This document shows, piece after piece, positions 1,536 through 56,750 of a stretch of DNA of 64,000 nt. The translations under genes and the position numbers were made by a program. The DNA lies in NCBI GenBank assembly GCA_017992765.1, contig JAGOOA010000001.1, positions 128,572 through 192,571 on the forward strand, given 5' to 3'. The notes beneath the pieces were generated by a model. It had not been told where the DNA came from, made no database searches, and worked only from the letters and a program-made list of their open reading frames with translations. This DNA is from Syntrophorhabdaceae bacterium. Its GTDB lineage: Bacteria; Desulfobacterota; Syntrophorhabdia; Syntrophorhabdales; Syntrophorhabdaceae. The first letter of the stretch is position 1. Each line of letters begins with the position of its first letter.

Positions 1536-1758
1536 GCGATCAGCTATCAGCAGTCAGCTTTCAGCTGAATAGTAAAAGGTGAAAGGTAAATCAGCTATCA
1601 GCAGTCAGCACACAGCTGTCAGCTGAAACAAAAAGAGTTTTATGCTGAAAGCTGATCGCTGATAGCTAAAAAGCTGTCAGTATCGAGTGGCCGGCATCTG
1701 CTTTTTTCGAACCTTGAACGTTGAACATAGAACGTTGAACAGTCTTTAGGGGTGGGAT
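1536..1758. repeat. Spacer of heptameric repeats in inverted arms
   Basis: Bases 1535-1565 and 1591-1625 are built from variants of AGCTATC/AGCAGTC/AGCTTTC. Bases 1644-1667 hold the inverse (GCTGAAA, GCTGATC, GCTGATA), so the arms could pair. A different family lies inside (GTAAAAG, GTGAAAG, 1572-1588), and a third at 1714-1740 (GAACGTT, GAACATA). A GGGGTGG Shine-Dalgarno-like run near 1749-1755 precedes cysK. Confidence 0.8.
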
Positions 1759-2712
1759 ATGAAGAGGATCTATGAGGACAACTCCTATTCGATCGGGAGG
1801 ACGCCCCTTGTGCGGCTCAATAAGGTGACCGGAGGCGCAAGGGCAACCGTCCTTGCCAAGATCGAAGGCAGGAACCCTGCCTATTCGGTGAAATGCCGCG
1901 TAGGCGCAGCAATGATCTGGGATGCCGAAAAGACTGGCAGGCTCAAGGCAGGCATGGAGATCATCGAGCCCACATCGGGGAACACCGGGATCGCACTCGC
2001 ATTCGTCGCCGCGGCGCGGGGCTACAAGATCACCCTTACCATGCCCGAGACGATGAGCATCGAACGCCGCAAGGTCTTAAAGGCCCTCGGCGCCGATATC
2101 ATTCTCACCGAGGGATCGAAGGGCATGAAGGGCGCAATCGATAAGGCCGAGGCGACGGCAATGGGCGATCCGTCGCGATACTTCCTCCCGCAGCAGTTTG
2201 AAAACCCCGCAAACCCGGCCATCCATGAGGCAACGACGGCGGTGGAGATATGGGACGATACGGAAGGGAAGATGGACATACTGGTCTGTGGCGTCGGCAC
2301 GGGCGGAACAATAACCGGGATAAGCCGCTATTTCAAGAAGGCCAGGGGCAAGGAGATCATCTCCGTTGCCGTGGAGCCGGTCCATTCACCGATACTCACC
2401 CAGACGAGAAACGGCGAGGAGCTGAAGCCGGGCCCCCACGTGATCCAGGGCATCGGCGCCGGCTTTGTGCCGAAGGTGCTTGACCTCTCTCTCATCGACA
2501 GGATCGAGACCGTAAGCAACGACGAGGCCATGGAAATGGCGCGCCGCCTGGCACGGGAAGAAGGCATCTTAAGCGGCATATCCTGCGGCGCTGCAGCGCA
2601 CGCGGCAACACGAATTGCCCATGAGCCGGAAAACGCAGGGAAGACGATCGTCGTCATCCTGCCGGATGCGGGGGAGCGCTATCTTTCCACGGAGCTGTTT
2701 GAACTCAGGTAA
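1759..2712 (+). CDS. cysK: Cysteine synthase (O-acetylserine sulfhydrylase)
   Basis: PLP enzyme of 317 residues that makes L-cysteine from O-acetylserine and sulfide in the cytoplasm. The PLP lysine is K45 in NPAYSVKCR. The substrate loop TSGNTG is at 72-77 and the phosphate-binding GTGGTITG at 180-187; SGISCGAA near 273 is also typical. Length matches CysK/CysM; CysK is preferred from the overall pattern. Most CysK proteins have SVKDR where this has SVKCR. It lies 7 bases before mnmA, so the two are probably co-transcribed, which pairs sulfur assimilation with tRNA thiolation. Confidence 0.92.
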
Positions 2713-2719
2713 GAACAGA

Positions 2720-3835
2720 ATGACCAGGACGGGACAAAAAATAGTCGCGGTAGGCATGAGCGGCGGGGTTGACTCTACGATGGCGGCCCTTCTCCTGCAA
2801 AGGCAGGGGCACGCAGTAGTGGGCCTGACGATGAAGATCTGGGACGATTCCGTGCAGCGTGCGACGACAAAAAGCGGGTGCTACGGCCCCGGTCAGGCAC
2901 ACAGCATAGCCGGCGCTCAGGCAACCGCCTTACAATTGGGGATTGAACACCATGTAATCGACCTCGGCGATGAGTTCCGGGAGACGGTCGTTGAATATTT
3001 CCGCAGGGAGTACATAAACGGAAAGACGCCAAATCCTTGCGTGACATGCAATTCGATGATCAAGTTCGGGGCGCTCCTTGAAAAGGCCGCGAAAAGCGGG
3101 ATCCTATTCGACCTTTTCGCAACAGGCCACTATGCAAGAATTGCCTATGATCCTGTTGAGCGCAGATACCTTTTGAAGCGCGGCATCGATAAGGCGAAAG
3201 ACCAGTCCTATTTTCTTTACAGGCTCTCGCAGCGGCAGCTTGAAAAGATCATCTTTCCCCTCGGTGATTACCGCAAGGACGAGATAATGGCCATCGCCCG
3301 GGAGGCGGGATTTACGGAGCATCTGGAAAAACCGGAAAGCCAGGATTTCCTGGAATGGGATGATTACGGCGTTCTCCTCGGCGGCAAGGGAAGGCCGGGC
3401 GATATAGTGGATGAAGCGGGCAACGTGATCGGCAAACATATCGGCGTCGGCCGCTATACCGTGGGACAGCGCAAGCTGCTCAACCTCGCGGGCATGAAGG
3501 AGCCCTTCTATGTCCTGAGCGTAGACGCCGGGCACAACGAGATCACTGCAGGGCCAAAAGGCTCTCTTCGCCGCACGGGGCTTGTTGCCGGAGACCTTCA
3601 TTGGATACTCCCGTTCGCCGCCCTGCGGGGCGAACGGCTCCAGGCGCAGATACGCTACAGGAGCACGCCTGCTCAGTGCACCCTCTACCCGGAAGGAGAT
3701 GGAACGGTCAGGGTTGAATTTGTTAAGCCCCAGGAGGCGATCGCCCCGGGCCAGTCGATCGTCTTTTACTCCGGTGACACGGTGGCAGGCGGCGGCATCA
3801 TACAAAAGTCCTTAAACGATAAAAGGGACGATTAA
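2720..3835 (+). CDS. mnmA: tRNA-specific 2-thiouridylase MnmA
   Basis: 371 residues from ATG 2720; the frame is open further upstream inside cysK, but family homology starts here. MnmA adds sulfur to U34 of Lys, Glu and Gln tRNAs. The PP-loop GMSGGVDST is at 12-20, ATGHYARI near 134 and KDQSYFLYRL near 160. The first catalytic region reads NPCVTCN (C107, C110), a CxxC form. The second catalytic Cys usually found in a '-ICFI-' motif is missing: the site reads PESQDFLEWDD (206-215). An extra Cys sits in SGCYGPG (C54). This is a recognisable variant subfamily rather than a broken gene. A possible iron-sulfur mode is inference. Confidence 0.9.
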   Translation: MTRTGQKIVAVGMSGGVDSTMAALLLQRQGHAVVGLTMKIWDDSVQRATTKSGCYGPGQAHSIAGAQATALQLGIEHHVIDLGDEFRETVVEYFRREYINGKTPNPCVTCNSMIKFGALLEKAAKSGILFDLFATGHYARIAYDPVERRYLLKRGIDKAKDQSYFLYRLSQRQLEKIIFPLGDYRKDEIMAIAREAGFTEHLEKPESQDFLEWDDYGVLLGGKGRPGDIVDEAGNVIGKHIGVGRYTVGQRKLLNLAGMKEPFYVLSVDAGHNEITAGPKGSLRRTGLVAGDLHWILPFAALRGERLQAQIRYRSTPAQCTLYPEGDGTVRVEFVKPQEAIAPGQSIVFYSGDTVAGGGIIQKSLNDKRDD

Positions 3836-3870
3836 ACGAGATGTGACCCTATCGGGGAGAGGCGGGAACT

Positions 3871-4698
3871 ATGAGTAGTTACGAATTTGCAGAAAAGACT
3901 GTGGAGATACTGCGTGAGGTCAGGAGGCGCAAGCCGCTGGTGCATCACATAACCAATTTCGTCGTAATGAACAGTACGGCGAATGCGACGCTTGCCGTCG
4001 GGGCATCGCCGATCATGGCCCATGCACACGAAGAGATGGAGGCCATGGCGGCGTTCGCCGATGCCCTGAACCTGAACATCGGGACGCTGACCCCTTATTG
4101 GGTGGATTCCATGATCCTGGCGGGAAAGGCCGCGGGCAAGCGGGGCATCCCTATCATATTGGACCCCGTCGGTTCCGGCGCGACCCCATTGCGGACGGAG
4201 GCTGCCAGGAGGATCCTGGAAGAGGTGCCCGTAACGGTGATACGGGGCAACGCATCGGAGGTGATGTCCTTGCTTTCCGTCGCCAAGGATGTCAGGATCA
4301 GGGGGGTCGATTCCCTCGAGACGGTTGACGCGGTGCGCGATGGCGCACACGCTCTGGCGAGGGAGTTGAAAAAGGTGATCGCCGTTACCGGCGAGATCGA
4401 CTTCATTACAAATGGAGAAAAGGCCATAGAGGTCCATAACGGGCATCCCATGTTCGGGCTCGTCACCGGGACGGGGTGCGCTGCGACAACGGTGATATCA
4501 TGCTTCTGCGCAGTCGAGCCCGATCCCCTTGTTGCGACGGCATGCGCCCTCGGATATTACGGGCTCGCAGGCGAAGAGGCGGCCCGCGCATCAAAGGGGC
4601 CGGGGAGCTTCCAGGTGGCGCTCTACGACGCGCTGCATGGCCTGTCCGAAGAGGCGATGATGGAAAGACTGAGGATCAGAATAGCTCATGGCTCATAG
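3871..4698 (+). CDS. thiM: Hydroxyethylthiazole kinase
   Basis: 275 residues. Phosphorylates 4-methyl-5-(2-hydroxyethyl)thiazole for thiamine salvage. Family signatures are HHITNFVVMN near the N-terminus, ASPIMAHAHEEM, LDPVGSGATPLR in the middle and GTGCAATTVIS with the active-site Cys near 205. A GGGGAGAGGCGGG run lies about 10 bases before ATG 3871. It is 36 bases after mnmA and about 180 before thiE. No TPP riboswitch is recognisable in the 36-base gap, and thiD is absent from the window. Confidence 0.93.
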   Translation: MSSYEFAEKTVEILREVRRRKPLVHHITNFVVMNSTANATLAVGASPIMAHAHEEMEAMAAFADALNLNIGTLTPYWVDSMILAGKAAGKRGIPIILDPVGSGATPLRTEAARRILEEVPVTVIRGNASEVMSLLSVAKDVRIRGVDSLETVDAVRDGAHALARELKKVIAVTGEIDFITNGEKAIEVHNGHPMFGLVTGTGCAATTVISCFCAVEPDPLVATACALGYYGLAGEEAARASKGPGSFQVALYDALHGLSEEAMMERLRIRIAHGS

Positions 4699-4878
4699 CA
4701 AATCGTATATCGTAGTTCGTATATCGTATATCGAAATACCCGGAAAACCATGAGGCGTTGGGAGATAAGGGATGATGAACGGGAAGCTACTATATACGAT
4801 ATACTATATACTATATACGACATACTGTTAGCTGTTTGCTGACGGCTGATGGCTGAAAGCTTGTATTGATTTTTTAAA
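4699..4878. repeat. Spacer of two heptameric repeat families
   Basis: Bases 4702-4737 consist of ATCGTAT/ATCGTAG/TTCGTAT units. The inverse family (ACGATAT, ACTATAT) is at 4788-4822, so the arms can form a long hairpin around a 50-base loop. The second family (GCTGTTT, GCTGACG, GCTGATG, GCTGAAA) follows at 4829-4859 just before thiE. No gene is visible. Confidence 0.8.
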
Positions 4879-5520
4879 ATGAAGAAACCGACTCTAAATG
4901 ATTACCGGTTGTATCTCGTGACCGATCCCCGCCTGCACAGGGGGTATACCGTGCTGGAGCAGGTGGGGCTTGCCCTTCGGGGCGGCGTAAAGATCATCCA
5001 GTTGAGAGAGAAGGAGATGCCCGCGCCTGATTACATAAGACTCGCCTCAGAGGCACTGAAGCTGACCCGCCCCCACGGCTCCTTCCTGATCATCAATGAT
5101 TCGGTGGAAGTGGCCAAGGCAACAGGCGCGGACGGGCTACACCTTGGACAGGAAGATGCGCCCGTTGCTGAAGCCCGCAAAATACTGGGACAGGATATCA
5201 TTATTGGCATCTCTGTAAAAACAGTGGGGGAAGCCGTCCGGGCGGAAAAAGACGGCGCCGATTACCTCGCCGTGAGCGGCGTGTTCCCTACCAGCACAAA
5301 AAAAGACCTTGGGCATTATCCAGGCCTTGACGGGGTCAGGCAGATACGGCAAAACACCCGCCTCCCCGTTATCGGGATCGGGGGGATCAACCCTGGCAAT
5401 TGCCGCAGCGTCATCGAGGCCGGGGCGCACGGCGTTGCGGTCGTGACGGCCATTACCATGTCGGAGGATATTCCAGGCACCTGCCGGGCGTTTCTCGAAC
5501 TGATAGCGAAACACCCGTGA
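4879..5520 (+). CDS. thiE: Thiamine-phosphate synthase
   Basis: 213 residues, TIM barrel. Joins HMP-pyrophosphate to thiazole phosphate to make thiamine monophosphate. Motifs in order: LYLVTDP (12-18), IQLREKEM near 40, LIINDSVEVAKATGADGLHLGQ near 75, GISVKTVGEA near 112, GVFPTSTKKD near 135 and GIGGI near 170. Length is normal. With thiM it gives the salvage half of the thiamine pathway. There is no clear Shine-Dalgarno before ATG 4879. Confidence 0.93.
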   Translation: MKKPTLNDYRLYLVTDPRLHRGYTVLEQVGLALRGGVKIIQLREKEMPAPDYIRLASEALKLTRPHGSFLIINDSVEVAKATGADGLHLGQEDAPVAEARKILGQDIIIGISVKTVGEAVRAEKDGADYLAVSGVFPTSTKKDLGHYPGLDGVRQIRQNTRLPVIGIGGINPGNCRSVIEAGAHGVAVVTAITMSEDIPGTCRAFLELIAKHP

Positions 5521-5686
5521 GGCGTGAATCGTAAGTCGTAAGAGGATATGAAACATGTAAAATGTGAAAGGCGAAAAGTAAAAGGTAAGAGACAAAGCGC
5601 AGCGGACGTCCCTCATCCCTCGGTCCTTATCCCTCGCCTTACGACTCACGGCCTTCTCGATATGCGACCTACGATATACGGTCTTA
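5521..5686. repeat. Repeat-rich spacer between thiE and tRNA-Pro
   Basis: Several 7-base-period families occur in sequence. GTAAGTC-like units lie near 5530, and GTGAAAG, GCGAAAA, GTAAAAG and GTAAGAG at about 5563-5590. The inverse type (CTTACGACTCACG) is near 5638 and a CGATATGCGACC/ACGATATACGG stretch at 5657-5681. No gene is seen. Confidence 0.65.
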
Positions 5687-5765
5687 TGGTCGGGATGACT
5701 GGATTTGAACCAGCGGCCTCTTGCTCCCGAAGCAAGCGCTCTACACCATGCTGAGCTACATCCCG
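5687..5765 (-). tRNA. tRNA-Pro (anticodon CGG), CCA encoded
   Basis: On the minus strand the cloverleaf closes fully. The acceptor CGGGATG pairs with CATCCCG, the D stem is GCTC/GAGC, and the anticodon stem CTTGC/GCAAG encloses loop TTCGGGA (anticodon CGG). The T arm has loop TTCAAAT. The discriminator is A and the 3' CCA is encoded. Length is 79 including CCA. The first base C1 with G72 pairing is characteristic of bacterial tRNA-Pro. Confidence 0.95.
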
Positions 5766-5858
5766 TGACCATTAAGATAGCAGACAAATCGGAAAAATTC
5801 CATTGATTTTTAACGGCAGACATGATACTTATTCACACTTTTCCCAAGGAGGTTGACG

Positions 5859-17042: not shown

Positions 17043-17221
17043 TGTGCAATACCTGTAGATATATAATTTCTAGATCCTAAGCACCAAGCACTAAACAATA
17101 TCAAAATACAAATATCGAATGCCTGAAACAGATGCATGTTTCTTAGCGTTTTGGGTTTTGAACATTTGAATTTGTTTAGTGCTTCGATATTCGGATTTAG
17201 AGTTTTCATTTCCATGTTATC

Positions 17222-25217: not shown

Positions 25218-25690
25218 GGACAATTTGTATAGCATGGGCAACGGTAAGTCAAGCGGCAAATTAACCGGATGCCGGCGATAAGAATAGAAGATGCGAGGAT
25301 GGGGAAATGCGAGGATGAGAGGATGCGGTGCTGGTCGCTCGATAATTGTCGCTGGAGTATAGCGCAAAGCGCATGGCGCATAGCGGAACAACCGTGAGGT
25401 GTCAAGGGAAACCTGTTCAGCGTTCAACGTTAAAACATGACAGATTAAAGACGTCAGATGTGTGGGGAATATGTCCTCGCGATGACAATACTTGTTCCAC
25501 GCACCTCGTTCCTCAATATACCTGACCTACATCAAGCGACCAGCACCGCATCCTCCCATCTTCCCATCCTCTCATCCTCCCATCTTCCCATCCCCCCATC
25601 TCCCGCTCGTACGTCCGCCTTTCTGGATTACCTTCTGTCGATGTGGTATAGTGGAGACTCATTTATTCTAAAAGGGATATTGAGAGAACA
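25218..25690. repeat. 473-base spacer of 7- and 8-base repeats
   Basis: No gene seen. Bases 25286-25331 read as GATG-led octamers (GATGCGAG, GATGAGAG). Bases 25546-25610 are the inverse: a run of CATC-led octamers such as CATCTTCC and CATCCTCT. The two stretches can pair around a 200-base loop. Within the loop are heptamers GCGCAAA, GCGCATG and GCGCATA (25364-25384), and a GTTCAACGTT word. A similar octamer block recurs near 52998-53040. Confidence 0.8.
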
Positions 25691-26437: not shown

Positions 26438-26579
26438 AAGTAGCCCATAGTTCATAGCAAGAAGAATCAGGTTGAGGTTAAGGTTGAGACTGAGGAGAAT
26501 CGGCAGTTTGCTTAACCTTAGCCTGAACCTTAGCCTGCATTTTTTGTTTGCTGAAAGCTGATCGCTGATAGCTGAATCT
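26438..26579. repeat. Spacer with inverted 6-base repeats
   Basis: Bases 26469-26497 are hexamers AGGTTG, AGGTTA, AGACTG; bases 26512-26537 are the inverse (TTAACC, TTAGCC, TGAACC), a potential hairpin between the converging exporter and lipoprotein genes. A GCTGAAA/GCTGATC/GCTGATA heptamer run follows at 26551-26575. Confidence 0.75.
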
Positions 26580-32958: not shown

Positions 32959-33304
32959 TTGAACAGCTCCTTTATACGGCACACCCCAAAGCGCTGCATT
33001 CGATCATAGCGAACTGCCACGCGGCACGCTGCGGGGGATCAGAGGATAGAAACGGCATAATTATGCCCCCTCACCCTACCCTCTCCCGCAGGGGGAGAGG
33101 GAACAATGTCGCCACACGGCGGGGTGGCATCCGGATTCAAATAAAACGCCGCAACCGGAAGATCTCTCCTCTGGTAGCGGCCCGGCCACTCTCCAACTGC
33201 CTTTCAGAACCTTCAAGCTCCTCTTTTGGGTATGTGATTTACAAATATACGTTTTTTTGCAGGCAATAGTCAAGTCATTGCATTTGCTTGTGGGCGTTAA
33301 AAAA
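32959..33304. repeat. Spacer with hairpin module, no gene
   Basis: A perfect palindrome GGCATAATTATGCC lies at 33053-33066. A hairpin of CCCTCTCCC / GGAGAGGG type follows at about 33079-33100, ending in AACAATGTCGCC. The same module is repeated at 36460-36584. The tract near 32985-33010 shares the word AAGCGCTGC with the hairpin at 36585. No coding sequence is visible. Confidence 0.65.
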
Positions 33305-33379: not shown

Positions 33380-33630
33380 ACAGTGATTCGATTATATACC
33401 AGCAATTTCGAGGTGTTGTCAAGGAAAAATAGTACATAGTATATCGTAGTTCGTATATCGAGATTACAAAAAACGTTCGGCGTAAAGATACAGTAAATAG
33501 TAGCATGTCATATACAGTGAACTGCAAAAGAACTCGGAACATCCGTAAGGCGCGAATGTATGTCGTAAGGAGATGAACTTGAAGTTACGATATACGATAT
33601 ACTAATCGGCTGTATGCTGACGGCTGATAG
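33380..33630. repeat. Spacer with inverted ATCGTAT-type heptamers
   Basis: Bases 33431-33462 contain ATAGTAC, ATAGTAT, ATCGTAG, TTCGTAT units; the inverse (ACGATAT, ACGATAT, ACTAATC) is at 33586-33606. Between them are CGTAAGG-type words (33547-33574). GCTGTAT, GCTGACG, GCTGATA units run into the end of clpB (33608-33631). Confidence 0.75.
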
Positions 33631-36219
33631 CTATTTATCTGTCTTGAACGTCACCTCTCCTTTCGCGTTGGCGTCGATGGTGATCTTCTGGCCGTCCTTT
33701 ACCTCGCCTTTCAGTATCATAAGCGCCAGCGCGTCCTGTATCTTCTTCTGGATGATCCGCTTCAGCGGGCGCGCCCCGTACGTTGGGTCGTAGCCTTCCT
33801 TTGCGATCATGTCCTTAAGCTTGTCGGTATATGCAAGCGCGATATTTCTTTCTGCCGCGCGCTTCGTGAGGTAATTGAGCTGGAGCTTCACGATCTCCTT
33901 GATATTTTCAGCAGAGAGGGACCTGAATATGATGATGTCGTCGATCCTGTTGATGAATTCGGGCTTAAAGTGCGTCTTCACTGCCTCGGAGACCCTCCGC
34001 TTCATCTCGTCGTAATCCTTGTCGGTGAGGTCGGTGATCCATTGGCTTCCGATGTTGGACGTCATGATGATGACGGCATTTTTGAAATCCACGGTCCTGC
34101 CCTGGCCGTCCGTCAGCCTCCCGTCGTCGAGGACCTGGAGGAGGACGTTGAATACCTCGGGGTGCGCCTTTTCCACCTCGTCGAGGAGGATAATGGAGTA
34201 AGGCCTTCTCCGGACGGCCTCGGTGAGGTAGCCGCCTTCTTCGTAGCCCACGTATCCCGGGGGCGCCCCGATGAGCCTCGACACGGAGTGCTTTTCCATG
34301 AATTCGCTCATATCGATGCGGACGATAGCCTGCTCGTCGTCAAAGAGGAATTCGGCGAGCGCCCGCGCAAGCTCTGTCTTGCCTACGCCTGTCGGCCCCA
34401 GGAAGAGAAAAGAGCCAAGCGGCCTGTTGGGGTCCTGCAGTCCTGCCCTGGCGCGCCGTATCGTGCTCGAGACCGCCTCTATTGCTTCTTCCTGGCCGAT
34501 GACGCGCCGGTGGATCCGGTCTTCCATGGTGACGAGCTTTTCCATCTCGCCCTCGAGCATCTTCGATACGGGGATGCCCGTCCACTTCGAGACGACCTTC
34601 GCGATGTCCTCTTCATCCACCTCTTCCTTGAGCATCTTCCTGCCTTTCTGGAGCTCGGCGAGCTCCCTGTTCCTGGCCTCCAGCTCCTGTTCTAAGGACG
34701 AAATGGTACCGTAGCGAATCTCTGCGACCTTACCGAAATCGCCTTTTCTCTCGAGATCATCCGCCTCGGTCCTGGCGCGGTCGATCTTTTCCTTGACCTC
34801 TCCGATGCCCATAATGAGGGCCTTTTCCTTTTCCCAGTGTTTTCTTTTCTCCCCGACCTCTTTTTTAAGCTCTTTCAGCTCTTCCTCGAGCTTTTTCTTC
34901 CTGTCCTTCGATGCCTCATCCTTTTCTTTCTTGAGCGCCTCGATCTCTATCTGGGCCTGGATGACCTTCCGCTCAACCTCGTCGATCTCCGTGGGGACGC
35001 TGTCGATCTCCATCCTTAGCTTCGATGATGACTCGTCGATAAGGTCTATCGCCTTGTCGGGAAGGAACCTGTCGGTAATATACCTGTGGGAGAGCGTGGC
35101 TGCGGCGATGAGGGCGGAGTCCTTTATCCGCACGCCGTGGTGGAGCTCATATCGTTCCTTCAGGCCCCTGAGGATCGCGATCGTTTCTTCCACCGACGGT
35201 TCACCGACCAAGACCGGCTGGAACCGCCTCTCGAGTGCGGCGTCCTTCTCGATATACTTACGGTATTCGTCAAGTGTCGTGGCACCGATGCAGCGGAGCT
35301 CGCCGCGCGCCAGCGCCGGCTTCAGCATGTTCGACGCGTCCACGGCGCCCTGTGCGCCCCCTGCCCCGACGATCGTATGGAGCTCGTCGATGAAGAGGAC
35401 CACCGTTCCGGCGGCCTCGCCGATCTCCTTGAGCACCGCCTTCAGCCTGTCCTCGAACTCGCCACGGTATTTTGCGCCCGCCAATAGCGCGCCGAGGTCA
35501 AGGGAAAGCACCCGCTTGTTCTTCAGCGTCTCCGGTATGTCGCCGCTTATGATCCTCTGGGCGAGGCCTTCAACGATAGCCGTCTTCCCGACCCCCGGCT
35601 CGCCGATGATCACGGGGTTGTTCTTCGTCCTCCTGGAGAGCACCTGCATGACCCTGCGCACCTCTTCGTCGCGGCCGATGACCGGATCGAGCTTTCCCTT
35701 CCTCGCCTCTTCCGTCAGGTCGCGGCAGTACCTCTGAAGCGCCTGGTATTTCTCTTCCGGCGCCTGGTCCGTGATGCGCTGGCTACCCCGTATGTCTTTC
35801 AGCACGGCGTAGATGCTGTCCTTGGTGACGCCGTTATTCTTCAGTATCTGGGCGGCAGAGCCCTCCTTGACCTCTGCGATGCCGATGAGGAGGTGTTCGG
35901 TGCTGACGTATTCATCCTTCAGGCGCGATGCCTCTTCGAAGGCGATGTCAACGGCGCGCTTCAATCCCGTCGAGATATAGACCTGTGCGGACCCCTCGAC
36001 GCGGGGCTTCTTCTTCAGCTCGCGGTCGAGGTCGTTGAGGATCGCGTTGGCGCTTGCGCCGAGCTTGTCGAGGAGCGGCTTTATTACCCCTTCCTTCTGC
36101 GCGACGAGCGCGTAGAGAAGGTGCTCGTTCTCGATCTGCTGATGGCCCATCGATTCCGCCTTCTTCTGCGCCTCGGCTACGGCCTCCTGTGCCTTTATGG
36201 TCAACTTTTCCCAGTTCAT
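33631..36219 (-). CDS. clpB: Disaggregating chaperone ClpB
   Basis: 862 residues. N-terminal Clp repeats ([20 protein letters not shown]), first AAA module with [17 protein letters not shown] (near 205) and [14 protein letters not shown], a long coiled-coil middle domain (about 410-525, rich in K and E) that distinguishes ClpB from ClpA/ClpC, and a second AAA module with [17 protein letters not shown] (near 605) and [14 protein letters not shown]. Works with DnaK to rescue aggregated proteins. AGAGGTGACC lies before the ATG. No CIRCE or sigma-32 promoter was recognised upstream. Confidence 0.96.
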
Positions 36220-36759
36220 ATGGTCACCTCTGTAGATTTACGCTTTCAGCTCACAGCGATCAGCCAACAGGTAAAGACAATATTTATGCGGTTCTGTTGC
36301 AAGCTGACTGCCGAAAGCTAATAGCTGATAACTATCTTTAATATAAACACGATTTCGGGAAAAGCAATATAAAGGCATGATTGCCGGACCTGCTATTCCA
36401 GAGACTCACGTCGTCCCCTACACGAGCAGAAGCTCGTGGAGTCTTCCCCCTCACCCTGACCCTCTCCCGCCGAGGGGAGAGGGGATATTATTGCTATGAC
36501 TTTTTCCCGCCAATGGGAGGGAACAATATTGCCATGTCGCCTGTACCCTAGCCCTTTTCTTCAAGGGTAGAGGGATATTGTTGCCCTGAAGCGCTGCTTC
36601 AGGGGATCTGTTGATCGAGCGTGTTTGCGGGGACATCGCGACACAGATGCCCATCTTGGGTTGGAGAATCAGGGTTTATCAGAGACTGAGGACTGATAGC
36701 TGTTTGCTGACAGCCCGGACGCTCTTTACAACACATGCCCCATATGCTATGAATTAGCC
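36220..36759. repeat. 540-base spacer with heptamers and hairpin modules
   Basis: No gene is seen. Bases 36240-36275 and 36300-36335 are AGCTCAC/AGCGATC and GCTGACT/GCTAATA heptamers that can pair with each other. Bases 36418-36613 are a run of hairpin modules described separately. Bases 36684-36716 again hold GCTG-led heptamers. GC-rich and AT-rich patches alternate. Confidence 0.75.
36418..36613. repeat. Array of hairpin modules with a shared tail
   Basis: Five consecutive hairpins. The first has ACGAGC-AGA-AGCTCGT (36422-36437). The second is CCCTCTCCC/GGGGAGAGG with tail GATATTATTGC (36484-36494). The third is a CCC...GGG stem with tail GAACAATATTGCC (36521-36533). The fourth has TACCCT/AGGGTA with tail GATATTGTTGCC (36573-36584). 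The fifth has CCTGAAGC-GCT-GCTTCAGG (36585-36603) with tail GATCTGTTG. Stems differ but the tail is conserved, so the unit is hairpin plus tail. The CCCTCACCCTGACCCTCTCCC-like word resembles dispersed repeats seen in other proteobacteria. Confidence 0.65.
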
Positions 36760-42843: not shown

Positions 42844-43151
42844 CGGCGTAACATTATCCTGCATGGGAGGGTGGAAGTCAAGGAACAGATAGGGCATAGC
42901 AAAACCTTCGTGAGGCGTAAGTCGTAAGGCGTGAGAGGAAAAGACGAGATACGAGGCAAGAGACACGAGGATGCTGCGGAGAATTTCGTGTTTATTGTTT
43001 ATGTTGGTTTTTATCAATGATTTTTTTCGCTTTTTTTGGTAGACTCAAATATTAGTTCTTTGTTCATGGCTGATGGCTCATAGTGAACAGCACTGCTTAC
43101 TTTGTTTAGTTTCTGCTGTCAGCTAATGAGCTGATTTTACAGGAGGGTGTT
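42844..43151. repeat. 308-base spacer, heptamers and AT-rich run
   Basis: Bases 42910-42932 hold GTGAGGC/GTAAGTC/GTAAGGC heptamers and 42943-42970 an ACGAGAT/ACGAGGC/ACACGAGG run. An AT-rich, T-run-containing stretch follows (42985-43060). GCTGATG/GCTCATA units lie at 43068-43084 and CTGTCAGCTAATGAGCTG at 43118-43135. AGGAGG at 43141-43146 serves the small gene below. Confidence 0.65.
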
Positions 43152-43929: not shown

Positions 43930-43937
43930 TAAGATAC

Positions 43938-44034
43938 AGGTGATAGGTCATAGGTCACGGGTGATGGGGGGATCAAAAAAAAGATCCCCCTGGAATCCAT
44001 AACCCTTTTTTCCCGTCACCTATGACCTATCACC
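43938..44034. terminator. Long inverted repeat with nested stem-loop after adk
   Basis: Outer arms 43938-43961 and 44012-44034 are heptamers (GGTGATA, GGTCATA, GGTCACG and their inverse) and pair over about 23 bases with one mismatch. Nested inside is GGGGGATC (43967-43974), an A8 loop and GATCCCCC (43983-43990). No T-run directly follows, so termination is plausible but not certain. Located 8 bases after the adk stop. Confidence 0.6.
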
Positions 44035-44052
44035 CATAACCTTATTTTATCC

Positions 44053-44871: not shown

Positions 44872-45069
44872 TAATCCCAGATTTTCCATTAGGATTAGCA
44901 CAGTGTCAGGCTCTTCCCCGCAAACACGCTCATTTAAGCTCCTGCGGCTAAATTCGCTCGCGTTCGGCTTCGGAACTTTTGCTTACGCAAAAGACCGAGC
45001 TTCCTCGCCTCACGACGGTTTGCTAAAGGAGAGCCCGACACCGTGCTAATGACTTATCTGGGATAATTA
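44869..45069. repeat. 201-bp imperfect palindromic element
   Basis: Ends are inverted: TAATAATCCCAGAT (44869-44882) against ATCTGGGATAATTA (45056-45069). An inner pair follows, AGCACAGTGTCAGGCTC against GAGCCCGACACCGTGCT, nearly complementary. The centre contains TTTTGC-TTAC-GCAAAA (44986-45001). The outer arms include the stop codons of both converging genes. It could be a small non-autonomous mobile element, or a bidirectional terminator. Confidence 0.7.
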
Positions 45070-45990: not shown

Positions 45991-46030
45991 CAGATCGTAT
46001 ATCGTAGCTCGTATATCGTATATCGGGATT
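45991..46030. repeat. ATCGTAT-type heptamer block
   Basis: Units ATCGTAT, ATCGTAG, CTCGTAT, ATCGTAT, ATCGGGA in phase, upstream of the AEC gene. Same family as at 4702, 33431 and 52126. No inverted partner is nearby. The rest of the spacer to 46237 shows nothing further. Confidence 0.7.
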
Positions 46031-50763: not shown

Positions 50764-51075
50764 ATGGTAAAGGATTACTCGCTTTATTTGCAGGTAGGCG
50801 ACAGGGTATACCACAAGTACTATAAGCGGTGGGGTCTCGGCATCGTTGTGGAAGAGCGGAGGTCTGAGCTCCCCGGCGGCTTCTGCTACGTACGGATAGA
50901 TTTTCAGGACGGGAAATTGCGGGTCTTCGACAATAATTTCAAAAGCGGGGGCTGCTGCTATTATGCGGGCATAGAGAAGGTCGATGACCGCAAGTTCAAG
51001 ATACAGTTCTTCGAGGACAGGCGCAGCGGAAACCCCAGGCCCGCCAGAAAGGCTTTGTTGAAAGGTGAGGAATAG
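50764..51075 (+). CDS. DUF3553-like small protein
   Basis: 103 residues from ATG 50764. Starts KDYSLYLQVGDRVYHKYYKRWGLGIVVEE, resembling the DUF3553/CarD-like barrel, with LPGGFCYVRIDFQDGKLRVF following. A TATAAA at 50752-50757 with TTGTTA 18 bases upstream would place transcription start at or near the ATG, so the mRNA may be leaderless. It lies 21 bases before selD. Function unknown. Confidence 0.6.
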   Translation: MVKDYSLYLQVGDRVYHKYYKRWGLGIVVEERRSELPGGFCYVRIDFQDGKLRVFDNNFKSGGCCYYAGIEKVDDRKFKIQFFEDRRSGNPRPARKALLKGEE

Positions 51076-51096
51076 TTCACTGCAACAGGAGAAGAT

Positions 51097-52125
51097 ATGG
51101 ATATAGAATTAACAAAATACGTCCGCGGAGCAGGGTGAGCGTCAAAGATAGGTCCGGGCGACCTTGCTAATATCCTTTGCGGAATAGAGATCCCGGGGGA
51201 CAAAAACGTGATAGTCGGCATAGAGGGCTTCGAGGACGCCGGCGTCTACAAGATCACCGACGAGATCGCCCTCGTCCAGACCATAGATTTTTTTACACCC
51301 ATTGTGGACGACCCCTACTGGTTCGGGCAGATCGCCGCGGCGAATGCCTTGAGCGATATATACGCCATGGGCGCCGTGCCGAAGACGGCATTGAACATGG
51401 TATGTTTTTCCCTGAAGAAATTTGATATGGCCGTTCTCAGGGAGATCATCAGGGGAGGTGTGGACAAGATACGGGAGGCGGGCGTGAGCCTCCTGGGAGG
51501 ACACAGCGTAGACGACGAAGAGATCAAGTATGGTCTTTCAGTGACCGGCGTTGTCCACCCCGACAGGGTCATCCTGAATCAAGGGGCGCTCCCCGGCGAT
51601 GTCCTGATCCTGACGAAGCCGCTCGGCACAGGCATTTTAAACACGGGGATCAAAGGGAAGATCCTCGGTGAAGGCTCTATCAAAAAATTGGTCGAGATAA
51701 TGGCGCGGCTCAACAGAAGGGCCTCGGAGGCGATGCTTTCCGTGAAAACCCACGCATGTACGGATGTAACTGGTTTCGGGCTCGCGGGCCACCTGAAGGA
51801 GATGATCGGGGAATCCATCGGCGTTGAGATATTCGGGGACAGGATCCCCTATTTCACAGAGGCGGTGGATCTCGTAAAATCCGGCTTTGCGCCCGGCGGC
51901 CTTTACAGCAACAGGGACTTCTACAAAACGCACGTTATAAGCGGCGCGCAGGACTTCTTCTACGATATTATCTTCGACCCCCAGACATCGGGCGGCCTGC
52001 TTTTCGCGGTGGCGGAGGAAGATCTGCCGTTATTTGAGAAGAACGCGAAAGGCCTGAAGGTTGACTATTGGACCATAGGGAAGTTCCTCGCGGAACCGAA
52101 AGGGAAGATATTATTAAGGCCGTAG
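51097..52125 (+). CDS. selD: Selenide, water dikinase, selenocysteine-containing
   Basis: 342 residues with Sec14 encoded by in-frame TGA at 51136-51138. The N-terminus reads M-DIELTKYVRGAG-U-ASKIGPGDL; U14 and K17 match the catalytic Cys and Lys of E. coli SelD (Cys17, Lys20). AGGAG lies before ATG 51097. Downstream: DEIALVQTIDFFTPIVDDPY, GVSLLGGHSVDDEEIKYGLS, TDVTGFGLAGHLKEM and DPQTSGGLLFAV. It makes selenophosphate from selenide and ATP. A hairpin 12 bases after the TGA fits a bacterial SECIS. Ordinary gene callers would start it at ATG 51208 and lose 37 residues with the active site. Confidence 0.93.
51150..51164 (+). promoter_or_regulatory. Putative bacterial SECIS hairpin in selD
   Basis: AGGTC (51150-51154), loop CGGGC, GACCT (51160-51164), starting 12 bases after the Sec TGA. 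Position and stem-loop size fit the SelB-binding element of bacterial selenoprotein mRNAs. Lower stem pairing is not obvious by eye. Confidence 0.55.
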
Positions 52126-52271
52126 TTCGTATATAGTATATAGTATATCGAAAAAATATTTAGATCCGAGATAGTCAAAGAAACTGTCAGCACACATCTG
52201 TCAGCATCCAGCATCAGTATTGTGTCTTCTTTGTATTTCGATATACGATATACGAACTACGATATACGGCT
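52126..52271. repeat. Inverted heptamer arms between converging genes
   Basis: Left arm 52123-52155 is GTAGTTCG followed by TATATAG/TATATCG units. The right arm 52236-52266 is its inverse (TTTCGATATACG, ATATACG, AACTACG). They pair over about 25 bases around an 80-base loop holding CTGTCAGC-type words. Lies exactly between the 3' ends of selD and the DUF3786 gene. Confidence 0.8.
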
Positions 52272-52928
52272 TTACTCTGTACTGAAGTCTTCCTCCATAT
52301 GCTGCTTCCTTGCTGTCTTCAGGATCCTCGCTGCGGCAAGCTTTGATATAACCACAATGTCTTCGAGCGGAAGATAGCCGGCGATCGAAGGATCGAAGAG
52401 GACCCTGACAAGAGGAGCGAACTCTTCGTCGCCTTCCCAAAGGATAAAGGTTATGGGCACTCTCGGGAGGGCGCAGAGGGTTATCGACGCATCTCCGTAT
52501 TCCTCCTTCTTTCCACCCATGGCCATGCCCGCCTCAAGAAACGCGTATCTGTCACGGGCGAATGCAGACTGCAAAGGCTTTGCGACCCTTTTTTCGAAAA
52601 CAGGCCGGTAATGCCTGCAGCCCGGTATGTCCTCGTATGCCACTATGCTGCCTCCAGGCGCGCTGCCGTTCGCGGTATTGATATAATGTAAAATGATGAT
52701 CTTTGTTACGAGTGTTACATTGTTTCCTTGCGCGCTTTTGAAAACAAACCCGGGCAAGTCGAGGGATATCACCTCATCAAAGAAGGGTATGTTGACCATA
52801 AATGTGCCGCTCCCCGCTTCGTATTGCAGGGCCGCATTCCCGAGCTGTTGTTCGATATTGGATCCGAGCAGCCTCTCGCACGCCGCATCATAAACGTTCT
52901 TGTAAGTTTTCTGTTTTTGCAGCAACAT
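52272..52928 (-). CDS. DUF3786 domain protein
   Basis: 218 residues. The C-terminal part carries the recognisable block PITFILWEGDEEFAPLVRVL, DPSIAGYLPLEDIVVISKL. DUF3786 proteins are found mainly in anaerobes, often near corrinoid or CO-metabolism genes; none are adjacent here. No signal peptide. Function unknown. Confidence 0.75.
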   Translation of the reverse strand: MLLQKQKTYKNVYDAACERLLGSNIEQQLGNAALQYEAGSGTFMVNIPFFDEVISLDLPGFVFKSAQGNNVTLVTKIIILHYINTANGSAPGGSIVAYEDIPGCRHYRPVFEKRVAKPLQSAFARDRYAFLEAGMAMGGKKEEYGDASITLCALPRVPITFILWEGDEEFAPLVRVLFDPSIAGYLPLEDIVVISKLAAARILKTARKQHMEEDFSTE

Positions 52929-53033
52929 GATATCAAAACCCGCTGACAGCTATCAGCAGACAGCCATCAGTGTCGATAATCGATCATCGAGTATCGAGCG
53001 ACCATCTTCCCATCCTCTCATCTTCCCATTCCC

Positions 53034-53696
53034 TCATGCTCCCACCTTCTTCCTCACTTCCTCTATTGTCTTTTTATAATCCTTTGTGTGGAAGATGCCG
53101 GTGCCCAGGACAAGGATGTTCGCGCCCGCATCGACTGCCCTTTTTGCGTTCTCTGTTTTTATGCCGCCATCGACCTCAAGGTCTATTGACCGTCCGGATC
53201 CCTCTATCATCTGCCTTGCCTTTTTTATCTTCTCATCCATGGCAGCGATATATCGCTGACCGCCAAAGCCCGGGTTGACGCTCATGATCAGCACCATGTC
53301 CACCTCGCTGATGATATGGTCGAGCTTTGAAAGCGGGGTTGACGGGTTCAGGGAGACGCCCGCCTTTTTCCCCGCCGATCTTATAACGTCGACCGTCCTG
53401 AAGAGATGGTAGTCTGCTTCAACGTGCACCGTTACGATGTCAGCGCCCGCAGAAATAAAGTCTTCCGCGTACCTTGCCGGGCTTTCGATCATAAGATGAA
53501 CGTCAAGCGGTTTTGTGGCGACCCTTTTTACCGCTTCAACGATCATAGGGCCGATGGTGATATTGGGAACAAAATGGCCGTCCATGACGTCGATATGTAT
53601 CAAGTCTGCGCCGGCCCTTTCCACGTCCTTTATCTCCTTCTCAAGCGTGAGAAAATTACATGACAGAATAGAAGGAGCTATGAAGACTCTGCTCAT
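53034..53696 (-). CDS. rpe: Ribulose-phosphate 3-epimerase
   Basis: 220 residues, TIM barrel. APSILSCNFLTLEKEI near 7, HIDVMDGHFVPNITIGP near 35 (metal His and Asp), DVHLMIESP near 64, DMVLIMSVNPGFGGQRYI near 137, LEVDGGIKTENA near 175. The ATG overlaps the PASTA gene by ATGA, with GGAGGG five bases upstream. Interconverts ribulose-5-P and xylulose-5-P. Confidence 0.96.
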   Translation of the reverse strand: MSRVFIAPSILSCNFLTLEKEIKDVERAGADLIHIDVMDGHFVPNITIGPMIVEAVKRVATKPLDVHLMIESPARYAEDFISAGADIVTVHVEADYHLFRTVDVIRSAGKKAGVSLNPSTPLSKLDHIISEVDMVLIMSVNPGFGGQRYIAAMDEKIKKARQMIEGSGRSIDLEVDGGIKTENAKRAVDAGANILVLGTGIFHTKDYKKTIEEVRKKVGA

Positions 53697-54403
53697 ATTT
53701 GCCCTCCGGTATTTATTTTGATGATCAATTCATTATCGTTGTTGAAGATAGTCTTTGGCGGTATCGATGTTTTGATGTCCGTCCTGCCGGGGGCATGTCC
53801 ATTGCTCCCGTATTGTATTGTGTACCTGATCTTTTTCATTTCCATTTCATCCAGCAGTGCGTCTATGTTGGCATCCGTCATGACAGGCAGCATATAGAAA
53901 GGCCTTTGTGCGCTCCCCACGACGAGGGTTACCCCGCCCTGTTCGAGAATGGTGCTGCCCCCCTTTGGCACCTGGGCTATCACCCTTCCTGTTTTTTCAT
54001 GCGGTATATATATGGTTTTCCTGATGGTGATAAGCTTTTCGCCAAGTATCTCGGCAGCCTTTTCCAACGGTTGGCCCGTAAGGGCCGGCACTTCAACGAG
54101 CTGGGGGCCCTCTGAGACGATGACGTAGAGTATCCTGCCCTTCCTGATGGCAATGTTTGCGTCCGGTTTTTGTACGGTAATATGGTTGTACGGGACGTCG
54201 TTTCTTCTTTCATAGCGGAGGATGATCAGGCTAAGCCCTTTGTTCCTGGCCATCTCTTTTGCCTCCTCGACCTTTTTCCCTCTCACGTCGGGGCACACGG
54301 TGGTCTCCTGCCCCTTGAGAACTATGTCAATGGTAAAATACATGGACAAGATAAATGCCGATATGGGGACAAGGAAGTAGAGTGAGTTTTTAAGCCACTT
54401 CAT
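53693..54403 (-). CDS. Membrane-anchored PASTA-domain protein
   Basis: 236 residues. One N-terminal membrane helix (about 6-28: LYFLVPISAFILSMYF) is followed by three PASTA modules of about 68 residues (TVCPDVRGKKVEEAKEMARN, VEVPALTGQPLEKAAEILGE, YMLPVMTDANIDALLDEMEM). There is no kinase or transpeptidase domain. PASTA modules sense muropeptides or the cell wall. The rsmB-PASTA-rpe order is known from other deltaproteobacteria; both junctions overlap by four bases. Confidence 0.85.
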   Translation of the reverse strand: MKWLKNSLYFLVPISAFILSMYFTIDIVLKGQETTVCPDVRGKKVEEAKEMARNKGLSLIILRYERRNDVPYNHITVQKPDANIAIRKGRILYVIVSEGPQLVEVPALTGQPLEKAAEILGEKLITIRKTIYIPHEKTGRVIAQVPKGGSTILEQGGVTLVVGSAQRPFYMLPVMTDANIDALLDEMEMKKIRYTIQYGSNGHAPGRTDIKTSIPPKTIFNNDNELIIKINTGGQI

Positions 54404-55686
54404 AATTTTCTCAGTTTAGCGATAAAGAACCCGTCCATGCCTGTCTCGTGCGGAAGCGATAAAAAGTATTCCTTATTAAACAGAAACGGCAAGGGATTTT
54501 CAAGGGTAAACTTCTCCGACCTTCTGAGCCTTTCAATGACGCCCGTCGTTTCCTCCGGCTCGAAGGAGCAGACGCTGTACACCATGCGGCCGCCTGTTTT
54601 CAGGGTGCCCCAGAGGGTTTTAAGCAGCTGCACCTGGGAGTCGCCAAGCGCGCTGATGTCTTTTTCCCTTTTGTGCCATTTGATCTCAGGGTGCTTGCGT
54701 ATGATCCCGAGCGATGAACAGGGCGCGTCGACCAGTATAACGTCGAAGGATCCTTCTCTGAAAGGAGGGCGTGATGCATCGCCGAGAACGCGGTTTCCTT
54801 CGTTGCGGACAAGCTCCAGCCTTTTGGCCTCCCTGTCCATTGAGACTATCAACGCATGTGCTGCAATGTCCTTTATATGATGGGTCTTTGTCCCTGAACC
54901 CGCGCAGGCATCAAGTATCCTATCCCCCGCCCGTGGGACGATGGACAGGCTGACAAGCTGGGACGCCTCGTCCTGGACCGTTACCATGCCATGTTGAAAC
55001 AGCCTGTGCTTCAAAACCGGCGTCAGCTTTCCGACATGCAGGGCGGCCGGCGATAAAACTCCTCTCTTTGTCTCTATGCCGTCCTTTTCGAGCTGCCTGG
55101 CCGCTTCCTCAACAGAGATCTTCTTTTCGTTCACCCGGAGCGCAAAGTCGGGTGTTTTGTTGAGGGCGGTAAGAAGCTCTGTGGTTTTTTGCCTGCCGAA
55201 CCTTTTATGCCATCTTACCGTGATCCATTCAGGGAAGGAATGCCGGACCGACAGGTTGTCTGCAACAAGCCGCGAGGTCCCGCCGTCCCGGAGGGCATCT
55301 CTGTCTCTCAGGTACTGCCGTAAAATCGCGTTGATGAAATTTGCGGCTCCCTTCCCTTTCTCCTTTTTCACGTAGCTTACGACCTCGTTGACAACATGGT
55401 ACGGGGCTTTTTGCATGAAGGATATCTGATAAAGGCTGAGCCACAACAGGTACCGCAGGTCGCTCCCGATAGGCCTTTTCGTGTAAAGGGAGAGGGCCCA
55501 GTTAAAATATGACTTCCATCGTATCGCCCCCGCGGCCATCTCGTATATAAGCCCTTTTTGCGATTCCGGCAAAGGGTGCTTTGAAAAAAAATAGCCTATG
55601 GCCTCATCAAGAAATGCGCCTTTTTCAACCTTCTTAATGATCCTGACGGACAGCTCCCGTGCGGCGTTTGCGGAATTATCTTCTAT
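54400..55686 (-). CDS. rsmB: 16S rRNA m5C967 methyltransferase RsmB (probable AUA start)
   Basis: 428 residues if begun at ATA 55686. The NusB-like N-terminal domain (ARELSVRIIKKVEKGAFLDE, then GLIYEMAAGAIRWK) is present in frame, but no ATG, GTG or TTG occurs between the upstream in-frame stop (55722) and TTG 55572, which would cut into that domain. ATA 55686 has GGAGG nine bases upstream and gives normal RsmB length. Catalytic parts: SAM site ILDACAGSGTKTHHI, DAPCSSLGIIRKHPE and YSVCSFEPEE with the two active-site Cys. It overlaps the end of htpX. Confidence 0.88.
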   Translation of the reverse strand: MEDNSANAARELSVRIIKKVEKGAFLDEAIGYFFSKHPLPESQKGLIYEMAAGAIRWKSYFNWALSLYTKRPIGSDLRYLLWLSLYQISFMQKAPYHVVNEVVSYVKKEKGKGAANFINAILRQYLRDRDALRDGGTSRLVADNLSVRHSFPEWITVRWHKRFGRQKTTELLTALNKTPDFALRVNEKKISVEEAARQLEKDGIETKRGVLSPAALHVGKLTPVLKHRLFQHGMVTVQDEASQLVSLSIVPRAGDRILDACAGSGTKTHHIKDIAAHALIVSMDREAKRLELVRNEGNRVLGDASRPPFREGSFDVILVDAPCSSLGIIRKHPEIKWHKREKDISALGDSQVQLLKTLWGTLKTGGRMVYSVCSFEPEETTGVIERLRRSEKFTLENPLPFLFNKEYFLSLPHETGMDGFFIAKLRKL

Positions 55687-56530
55687 GTGCCATATCCTCC
55701 AATCTCTTGATACGCTCTTCTATTGGAGGATGAGTGCTGAAAAGAGACAGGATGCCTTTTGCGCTGAAGGGGTTGACGATGAACAGCGGCGCCGTTGAAG
55801 GATTCGCATCGTTCATCGGGGTGCGTGCGACACCGGCGTGAAGCTTTTTTAATGCACCGGAAAGAAAGAGCGGGTTCCCGGAAAGCCTCGCGCCGCCGTC
55901 GTCGGCAAGATACTCTCTGGACCGCGAAATTGCAAGCTGTATAAGCATAGCGGCAAAAGCGGCGATCATGGAAAAGATGATCACGCTGAAGATGTTGCCT
56001 CCACCTTCGTCGTCGTCACTGTGTGAACCGCCGAAGAATGCTGCGAAGCGCGCTATGTTCGCGATCATCGTAATCGCCCCCGCGAGCGTTGCGGCAACGC
56101 TCTGGATCAGGATGTCCCTGTGCTTTATGTGCGATATCTCGTGCGCGAGGACGCCCTCCAGCTCGTCCCTGCTCAGTATTCTCATGATGCCCGTCGTAAC
56201 GGCGACGACCCCGTGGGACGGGTCCCTTCCTGTCGCAAATGCGTTCGGGCTGTCATTCTCTATGATATAGACCTTCGGCATTGGTATGGACGCCTTCTGG
56301 GCAAGAGACGCAATTGCGGCGTATAGCTGAGGGGCCTCGTTCTCCGAGACCTGCTTTGCCCTATACATGGCGAGGACGATCCTGTCGGAAAACCAGTAGC
56401 TCACAAAATTCATAACAACAGCAATGGAAAAGGCTATATATGCGCCTGAACTTCCTCCGATCATGCTTCCAATGGCGACAAATATTACTGTCAGCACCAC
56501 CATCAGAAAAAATGTCTTTGCCTGATTCAT
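55676..56530 (-). CDS. htpX: HtpX-type zinc metalloprotease
   Basis: 284 residues. Two N-terminal membrane helices (about 7-50), zinc motif HEISHIKHRD (near 131), a second hydrophobic pair near 150-200, and the third ligand region REYLADDGGA near 210. Membrane-protein quality control. The ATG has GGAGGCACGA upstream. The 3' end overlaps the rsmB start and supplies its Shine-Dalgarno. Confidence 0.93.
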   Translation of the reverse strand: MNQAKTFFLMVVLTVIFVAIGSMIGGSSGAYIAFSIAVVMNFVSYWFSDRIVLAMYRAKQVSENEAPQLYAAIASLAQKASIPMPKVYIIENDSPNAFATGRDPSHGVVAVTTGIMRILSRDELEGVLAHEISHIKHRDILIQSVAATLAGAITMIANIARFAAFFGGSHSDDDEGGGNIFSVIIFSMIAAFAAMLIQLAISRSREYLADDGGARLSGNPLFLSGALKKLHAGVARTPMNDANPSTAPLFIVNPFSAKGILSLFSTHPPIEERIKRLEDMAHRR

Positions 56531-56579
56531 TCGTGCCTCCGTTCTCGGATACTTATCATTAGTATAAGCATTTTCATGC

Positions 56580-56750
56580 TTTAATCAAGAGATACCGCAA
56601 CTGACAGCCCTCAGCTTTCAGCAGACAGCTAACAGCAATGTACCCGCAGGTTGTTAGTTGTGAAATGTAAAAGATGAAACATAGAATGTTTAAACTTTTC
56701 ACGTTTCACGATATTGGCTGATAGCTGTTGGCTGATAGCTGAAAGCTGAT
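56580..56750. repeat. Spacer of heptameric repeats, several families
   Basis: AGCCCTC/AGCTTTC/AGCAGAC/AGCTAAC units lie at 56606-56634. GTGAAAT, GTAAAAG, ATGAAAC, ATAGAAT follow at 56659-56686, and GCTGATA, GCTGTTG, GCTGATA, GCTGAAA at 56715-56748. The first and last blocks are inverted relative to each other. Confidence 0.8.

What the first reader, a model, noticed from the sequence alone, without database searches (positions are those of the whole stretch)
1536..56750. Spacers filled with degenerate 6-8 base tandem repeats of many families
Seen at 228, 1535-1740, 4702-4859, 5563, 25286-25610, 26469-26575, 33431-33631, 36240-36716, 42910-42970, 43938-44034, 45991, 52123-52266, 52940-53040 and 56606-56748. 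Most families differ in sequence (GCTGATA, ATCGTAT, GAACGTT, GTGAAAG, GTAAGTC, GCGCATA, GCTCTCC) but share a period near 7; a few are 6 or 8. Blocks often come as inverted arms around a loop, mostly at operon ends. A shared period with unrelated sequence suggests a common generating process (slippage or template copying) or a shared reader. I know of no described system matching it.
Basis: partly seen in the sequence, partly recalled or inferred. Interest (0 to 1): 0.72.

Follow-up and report, generated by a model that had tools for sequence, protein, structure and literature searches.

The report
Fast-swapping heptamer hairpins between genes
The gaps between genes in this Syntrophorhabdus-like bacterium are filled with hundreds of hairpin-shaped repeats built from 7-letter units of many unrelated sequences, and between close relatives these hairpins are swapped wholesale while the genes beside them hardly change.

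Summary
In the window's spacers lag 7 and its multiples stand out (z = 14). In 814 kb of the same genome there are 262 period-7 arrays in 149 of 390 spacers; in a 464 kb subset, spacers had 159 arrays against about 5 in shuffles, and coding DNA 50 times fewer per base. The arrays are not independent slippage tracts: ordered strings of unit variants recur at many loci, and 93% of heptamer spacers match another spacer (22% of the others), often over about 100-150 bp. Same-family arrays pair as inverted arms of one hairpin. Genus relatives (95.9 to 83% nt identity) show wholesale replacement: 17% of heptamer spacers stay alignable against 81% of other spacers. At one site different species carry hairpins of unrelated heptamer families, and some sites are almost empty. 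Arrays favour gene 3' ends, but most lack a T-tract, so they are not ordinary intrinsic terminators. Best reading: dispersed, nested, palindromic small repeats spread by short-tract copying or template switching, with arms extended in 7-nt steps. Intergenic heptamer repeats are already described, so this is a new variant of a known kind; why 7, and what copies them, remains open.

The parts
225..252 (.). GCTCTCC-type heptamer array
1536..1740 (.). Composite: GCTGATA-family arms (1536-1566, 1590-1625, 1644-1667) and GAACGTT array (1709-1740); its GCTGATA hairpin matches another locus over 118 bp at 89%; absent from orthologous site in G004, which has CGTAAGG/CTTTCAC arms
4702..4861 (.). ATCGTAT arm (4702-4733), inverted partner (4788-4825), GCTGATA array (4825-4861); 96 bp at 92% to another locus; replaced by CGTAAGG arms in G004
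5548..5591 (.). GTGAAAG/GTAAAAG heptamer array beside tRNA-Pro gene
25286..25604 (.). Octamer arms GATGCGAG (25290-25327) and its inverse CATCCTCC (25549-25604), with a short ATAGCGC heptamer array between (25359-25385)
26469..26575 (.). Period 6/12 inverted arms (AGGTTGAGGTTA / AACCTTAGCCTG) plus GCTGATA heptamers (26550-26575); different modules in G004 and G005
33429..33630 (.). Composite ATCGTAT hairpin with internal CGTAAGG and terminal GCTGACG modules; replaced by GCTATCA/GCTGACG arms in G002
36240..36716 (.). Weak CAGC/GCTGA hairpin (partly conserved in G002 and G004) plus other dispersed hairpins
43052..43081 (.). GGCTGAT/GCTCAT outer arm; interior module differs in G002 (CGTAAGG arms) and G004 (CGATAAT array)
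43938..44041 (.). GGTCATA inverted arms between convergent genes, fold z -7.8; GCTGACA arms in G002 and G004, another family in G005, GGTCATA in G001
45994..46025 (.). ATCGTAT array, followed by GTTCGGC units; different content in G002, G004 and G005
52123..52268 (.). ATCGTAT inverted arms (52129-52148, 52239-52268) between convergent stop codons; different families in G002/G004, G003 and G006; site almost empty in G005
52940..53044 (.). GCTGACA heptamers, CGATAAT palindromic heptamers, then CATCTTCC octamers; graded states in G006, G005, G003
56606..56749 (.). GCTGATA outer arms with GTGAAA/TTTCAC inner hairpin, fold z -6.1; CGATAAT module in G002, CGTAAGG composite in G004

Best explanation
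The spacers hold a population of dispersed, apparently non-autonomous, palindromic small repeats (hairpins of about 70-200 bp, often nested) whose arms are degenerate tandem heptamers from about a dozen sequence families. SHOWN: period-7 excess, inverted arms, copying of ordered modules between loci, wholesale replacement between species at fixed spacer positions, hairpin potential kept although sequence is not, bias to gene 3' ends. INFERRED: new alleles are written by short-tract copying (template switching or gene conversion) from other copies in the genome, seeded by microhomology between the flank or an old arm and a heptamer module; arms then grow or shrink in 7-nt register by slippage, a minor contribution. 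INFERRED and weak: gene 3' ends tolerate or favour any hairpin (transcript end or protection), which keeps structure while sequence changes. The copying enzyme, and why the step is 7, are not identified.
For: Period 7. Inverted arms. Ordered unit strings shared between loci beyond 500 shuffles for the ATCGTAT and GCTG families. 93% of heptamer versus 22% of other spacers match another spacer (reversed control 3%), with matches of 96-152 bp at 88-96% that span arms and loop. Replacement: 13 of 78 heptamer versus 117 of 145 other orthologous spacers still align at 84% or more flank identity. Structure kept across non-homologous alleles. 3'-end bias. Mini-palindromes and partial matches at near-empty sites.
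Against: No recent event was caught with its donor; no machinery was found; gene calls are home-made; comparisons among seven related genomes are not independent. Two spacer states (43930 and 52126) conflict with the species tree, so import of spacers by recombination between species could explain part of the swapping. The microhomology seeds rest on three sites.
Confidence: 0.55

Rival explanations
1. Pure replication slippage in place: the DNA polymerase favours 7-nt misalignment and each locus generates its own array.
For: One dominant period with many sequences; a polymerase-footprint idea for heptamers is cited in the literature; a 7-nt peak, though small, among indels.
Against: Ordered variant strings and whole 100-150 bp hairpins recur at distant loci; most change between species is replacement, not copy number; slippage does not make inverted arms.
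Confidence: 0.12
2. MITE/REPIN-like elements moved by a transposase, for example Y1/TnpA_REP (RAYT) enzymes, with heptamer arms as the ends.
For: Dispersed palindromes with many copies; Y1 transposase genes in all seven genus genomes; some nearly empty sites.
Against: The three Y1 genes of G000 have GGGGACG-type borders and no heptamer arrays at their ends; Y1 genes also occur in genomes without GCTGATA arrays; no target duplication seen at the empty sites; many unrelated families would need one enzyme each.
Confidence: 0.15
3. Spacer alleles are exchanged between species by homologous recombination, heptamer spacers being hotspots; the arrays are old and merely shuffled.
For: At 43930 and 52126 the window shares boundary features with more distant genomes (G001; G003 and G005) against its closest relative.
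Against: Flanks show no imported tract: G000-G002 identity stays near 0.95-0.98 on both sides of 43930; does not explain within-genome copies or period 7.
Confidence: 0.1
4. A shared reader: a single-strand nucleic acid binding protein with a footprint of about 7 nt (cold-shock type) selects heptamer arrays of loose sequence.
For: One period, many sequences; CspB binding of heptamer repeats is discussed for TAACTGA repeats.
Against: No direct evidence here; arrays prefer 3' ends of genes rather than start codons; does not explain copying of modules.
Confidence: 0.05

Closest known systems
Heptanucleotide P6b stem-loop of the cyanobacterial tRNA-Leu(UAA) intron (Class I TDNGATT / Class II NNTGAGT; PMC4476775)
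   Same: Hairpin arms made of degenerate heptamers; one site switches between unrelated heptamer classes while pairing is kept.
   Different: One site in an intron and two classes there; here about 150 spacers in a third of the genome and about a dozen families, nested and copied between loci.
Paired tandem hepta-/octanucleotide 'putative global regulator binding sites' of Geobacter metallireducens (PMC2700814)
   Same: Tandem 7- and 8-mers in pairs on opposite strands, dozens of copies, mostly intergenic; also a deltaproteobacterium in the older sense.
   Different: Few classes, read there as regulator sites; no swapping between species was reported in the passages read.
Intergenic heptamer repeats: TAACTGA in Beggiatoaceae, Cyanobacteria and Bacteroidetes (PMC4679880); GGGAATC / GGGGA(C/T)T in Xanthomonas and Nostoc (PMC4692102); STRR of Calothrix (cited there)
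   Same: Period 7, intergenic, patchy across taxa, mechanism unknown.
   Different: One or few near-perfect families, TAACTGA mostly direct repeats near start codons; here many degenerate families in inverted arms biased to gene 3' ends.
REP/BIME/REPIN and MITE elements
   Same: Short extragenic dispersed palindromes.
   Different: Defined ends tied to a transposase and no 7-nt period (general knowledge); heptamers here are not found at the ends of the genome's Y1 transposase genes.

Membership tests
Intergenic heptanucleotide repeats (STRR/LSSR kind) | Head-to-tail 7-nt units in excess over shuffles | tested here: met
Intergenic heptanucleotide repeats (STRR/LSSR kind) | Mainly non-coding location | tested here: met
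   0.56 versus 28 arrays per 10 kb, coding versus spacer
Intergenic heptanucleotide repeats (STRR/LSSR kind) | Near-perfect copies of one or a few units | tested here: not met
   Units are degenerate; 52 canonical consensus words among 154 arrays
P6b-like heptamer hairpin | Complementary heptamer arms forming a stem | tested here: met
P6b-like heptamer hairpin | Replacement of one heptamer class by another at one site with structure kept | tested here: met
P6b-like heptamer hairpin | Location in a group I intron stem of tRNA-Leu | tested here: not met
   Arrays lie in protein-gene spacers; Rfam scan of the window finds only two tRNAs
REPIN/RAYT system | Repeats flank a cognate Y1 transposase gene | tested here: not met
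   (three genes of G000)
MITE | Terminal inverted repeats with target-site duplication | tested here: inconclusive
   Inverted arms present; no duplication recognised at near-empty sites, but few sites
Intrinsic terminators | Stem followed by a T-tract | tested here: not met
   Only 13% of heptamer stems have 5 or more T in the next 8 nt, against 6% background
CRISPR array | Regular repeats separated by unique spacers | tested here: not met
   Units are head-to-tail 7-mers

The most novel reading that the evidence does not exclude
One unidentified copying activity with a fixed 7-nt step (for instance a hairpin-primed or template-switching polymerase) writes palindromic heptamer arrays of arbitrary sequence into gaps next to gene ends, so that spacers are continually overwritten by hairpins alike in structure and unrelated in sequence; the same activity would underlie heptamer repeats in Nostoc, Geobacter, Beggiatoaceae and Planctomycetota.
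Probability: 0.13. Interest if true: 0.88.

Novelty: new variant of a known kind. Interest (0 to 1): 0.62.

Why it matters
Heptamer excess in bacterial spacers has been noted for years without a mechanism. Here a genus with sequenced relatives from about 96 to 83% identity shows the outcome of the events: same site, conserved flanks, unrelated heptamer hairpins. That makes the generating process directly testable and shows that spacer DNA can turn over far faster than the genes beside it. It also warns that comparative searches for conserved regulatory spacers, and small ORFs annotated across such arrays, will mislead in these genomes.

Tried and rejected
Y1/TnpA_REP transposases as the mobiliser: present genus-wide, but the borders of the three G000 genes are not heptamers.
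Viral carriage: two family-specific 20/21-mers have 0 hits in IMG/VR; three perfect GCTGATA units hit 42 viral stretches, which is not specific to this set of families.
One dictionary shared across phyla: the exact 20-mer ATCGTAGTTCGTATATCGTA also occurs in a planctomycete and a patescibacterial MAG. The planctomycete genome has 108 CGTAT-type matches, but with different variants, and neither MAG has GCTGATA arrays; this looks like an independent heptamer-rich genome rather than transfer.
The exact 21-mer GTTGAACATAGAACGTTGAAC is in 4 of 297 genomes of the phylum, one of them in a distant family; left open.
Terminator reading: weak T-tract signal; the window scan finds terminator-like sites near the shuffled number (24 versus 19.2 +/- 4.5).
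RNA families: only two tRNAs.
Limits: gene calls come from a simple codon-score caller of my own; the positional entropies are biased by the search patterns and were not used; period-7 density across other genera could not be compared well because the sampled contigs were short.

Full report
WHAT WAS CHECKED. The window is G000:C70:128572-192571 of a 2.42-Mb, 71-contig draft genome. Its relatives can be named by matching pattern counts, a contig length or nucleotide identity: G002 = USCA_metabat.30 (95.9% nt), G004 = UBA6106 (89.8%), G001 = UBA7527, G006 = Syntrophorhabdus sp. PtaU1.Bin058 (83.2%). The host is therefore a Syntrophorhabdus-like deltaproteobacterium (inference; taxonomy).

THE PERIODICITY IS REAL. 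In 28 window spacers lag 7 has z = 14.2, lag 14 10.1 and lag 21 6.2, while lags 5, 6 and 8-13 stay at or below 1.6. In 464 kb of the same genome, spacers hold 159 period-7 arrays against about 5 in dinucleotide shuffles (a floor due to runs of N). Period 6 gives 14, 8 gives 15 and 12 gives 22. Coding DNA has 0.56 arrays per 10 kb against 28 in spacers. With N masked there are 154 arrays and 52 canonical consensus words, led by ATCGTAT/ATAGTAT, GCTGATA, GTTCAAC, CGTAAGG/CGTAAGT/CGTGAGG, GCTCATA, GTTCGGC, GCTCTCC and CTTTCAC families. In 814 kb there are 262 arrays in 149 of 390 spacers. One family alone (ATCGTAT, three units, up to 3 mismatches) has 343 matches genome-wide against 6 for the reversed pattern.

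ANATOMY. Arrays in one spacer pair as inverted repeats more often than as direct repeats (26% versus 9%; unrelated spacers 7%; arms mostly 5-90 bp apart; p = 5e-5). Heptamer spacers fold far better than shuffles (median z -2.9, against -0.35 for other spacers). Structures are often nested, with one family's arms outside and another's inside. Arrays favour gene 3' ends: 56% of convergent, 40% of co-directional and 22% of divergent spacers hold one, and in co-directional spacers 67 arrays lie within 30 nt of the upstream stop against 25 within 30 nt of the downstream start. Few stems are followed by a T-tract (13%).

COPYING BETWEEN LOCI. Beyond the family consensus, the order of unit variants recurs at different loci more than in any of 500 unit shuffles for the two large families (83 versus mean 30, max 67; 22 versus mean 2.7, max 11). 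93% of heptamer spacers match another spacer at 36 bits or more (median 20 partners) against 22% of other spacers; the reversed-sequence control gives 3%. Several matches span arms and loop over 96-152 bp at 88-96% identity. These are dispersed repeats with an internal period of 7, not independent microsatellites.

TURNOVER. Alignments of the window to its relatives break at heptamer spacers while the flanking genes align at about 76-97%. Over all genus comparisons with at least 84% flank identity, 13 of 78 heptamer spacers but 117 of 145 other spacers remain alignable (p = 7e-21, though the comparisons are not independent). Against G002 (95.9% nt) all seven spacers with an array in either genome were replaced. 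Window 43930-44046 has GGTCATA arms, shared with G001; G002 and G004 have GCTGACA arms; G005 has GGCTGAGGCTCA arms; every allele folds with z between -5 and -8.2. Window 52126-52271 has ATCGTAT arms; G002 and G004 have GCTCATA plus AAATCC nested arms, G003 CGTAATT, G006 CGTAAGG, and G005 has almost nothing between the two stop codons. G002 and G004 keep orthologous arrays at these sites, which argues against assembly error. In the few alignable heptamer spacers, 5 of 44 indels are 7 nt long, so unit slippage occurs but is minor.

SEEDS. Near-empty sites suggest how arrays start. G005 has the mini-palindrome TTAGCTCACAGCTAA where G002 and G004 have long GCTCATA-type hairpins. G006 has GGCTATTAGCC where G005 has five in-register heptamers that begin with GC. 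The G000 array at 52123 begins on the gene's own CCGTAG stop, which matches the CGTAGTT unit. This fits microhomology-seeded copying; it is an inference from three sites.

WHAT MOVES THEM. No enzyme is identified. Y1 transposase genes are present in all seven genus genomes, but the three in G000 are bordered by GGGGACG-type sequences, not heptamers. A conventional miniature element does occur in the window (44876-45062, CCCAGAT ends, apparent ATAAT duplication, 15 partner spacers), so ordinary transposition looks different here. Two spacer states conflict with the species tree, so recombination of spacers between species may contribute.

KNOWN RELATIVES. Heptamer excess among long simple repeats, with a proposed polymerase footprint of 7 nt, is described or cited in PMC4679880 and PMC4692102. 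Geobacter metallireducens has classes of tandem 7- and 8-mers in pairs on opposite strands, read there as regulator sites (PMC2700814). The Nostoc trnL intron P6b stem is built from one of two heptamer classes, one of which has repeatedly replaced the other while structure is kept (PMC4476775); it is the closest match in behaviour. I found no report of a genome-wide, many-family, nested and swapping system, but only an open-access library was searched. A planctomycete MAG carries its own CGTAT-type heptamer arrays with different variants and no GCTGATA, so the kind recurs in other phyla.

VERDICT. Observation confirmed; interpretation partly supported. This is a new variant of a known kind. 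The open questions are the copying machinery and the reason for 7.

Noticed in passing
window 44876-45062: MITE-like element with CCCAGAT...ATCTGGG ends and an apparent 5-bp ATAAT target duplication, absent from G002; 15 other spacers in the sample match it, the best over 187 bp at 94%.
   Followed up: partly
window 36440-36490; also about 33065-33110: GC-rich dispersed hairpin of the type CCCTGACCCTCTCCCGCNNGGGGAGAGGG; related 16-mers occur at 10 loci of the own-genome sample.
   Followed up: no
window 1-225: 2.5 copies of a 91-bp direct repeat (98% match) next to the GCTCTCC heptamers.
   Followed up: no
L145 (G000:C62), just upstream of and into the Y1 transposase frame at 3731: The start region of a Y1 transposase gene (AAAGGGGGACGCCCTTCAATATTTCAATTAACGATCATTTTTCATCAAGG) is tandemly repeated upstream of it.
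   Followed up: no
window 17043-17221 and G002/G004 alleles at 52126: Another dispersed nested hairpin family (AAATCCTAAATCC...GGATTTGGTGCTTAGG), without a clean period 7; 14 partner spacers.
   Followed up: partly
L019 genome (G331, Planctomycetota): Long degenerate heptamer arrays with a CGTAT core (108 matches, reversed control 0), some of twenty units, in an unrelated phylum.
   Followed up: partly
G003, G006, G023: The reversed control of the GCTGATA pattern hits 28, 100 and 35 times; a read array in G023 is AGTCGATAGTC-like, so these genomes seem to carry a further heptamer family ATAGTCG.
   Followed up: no
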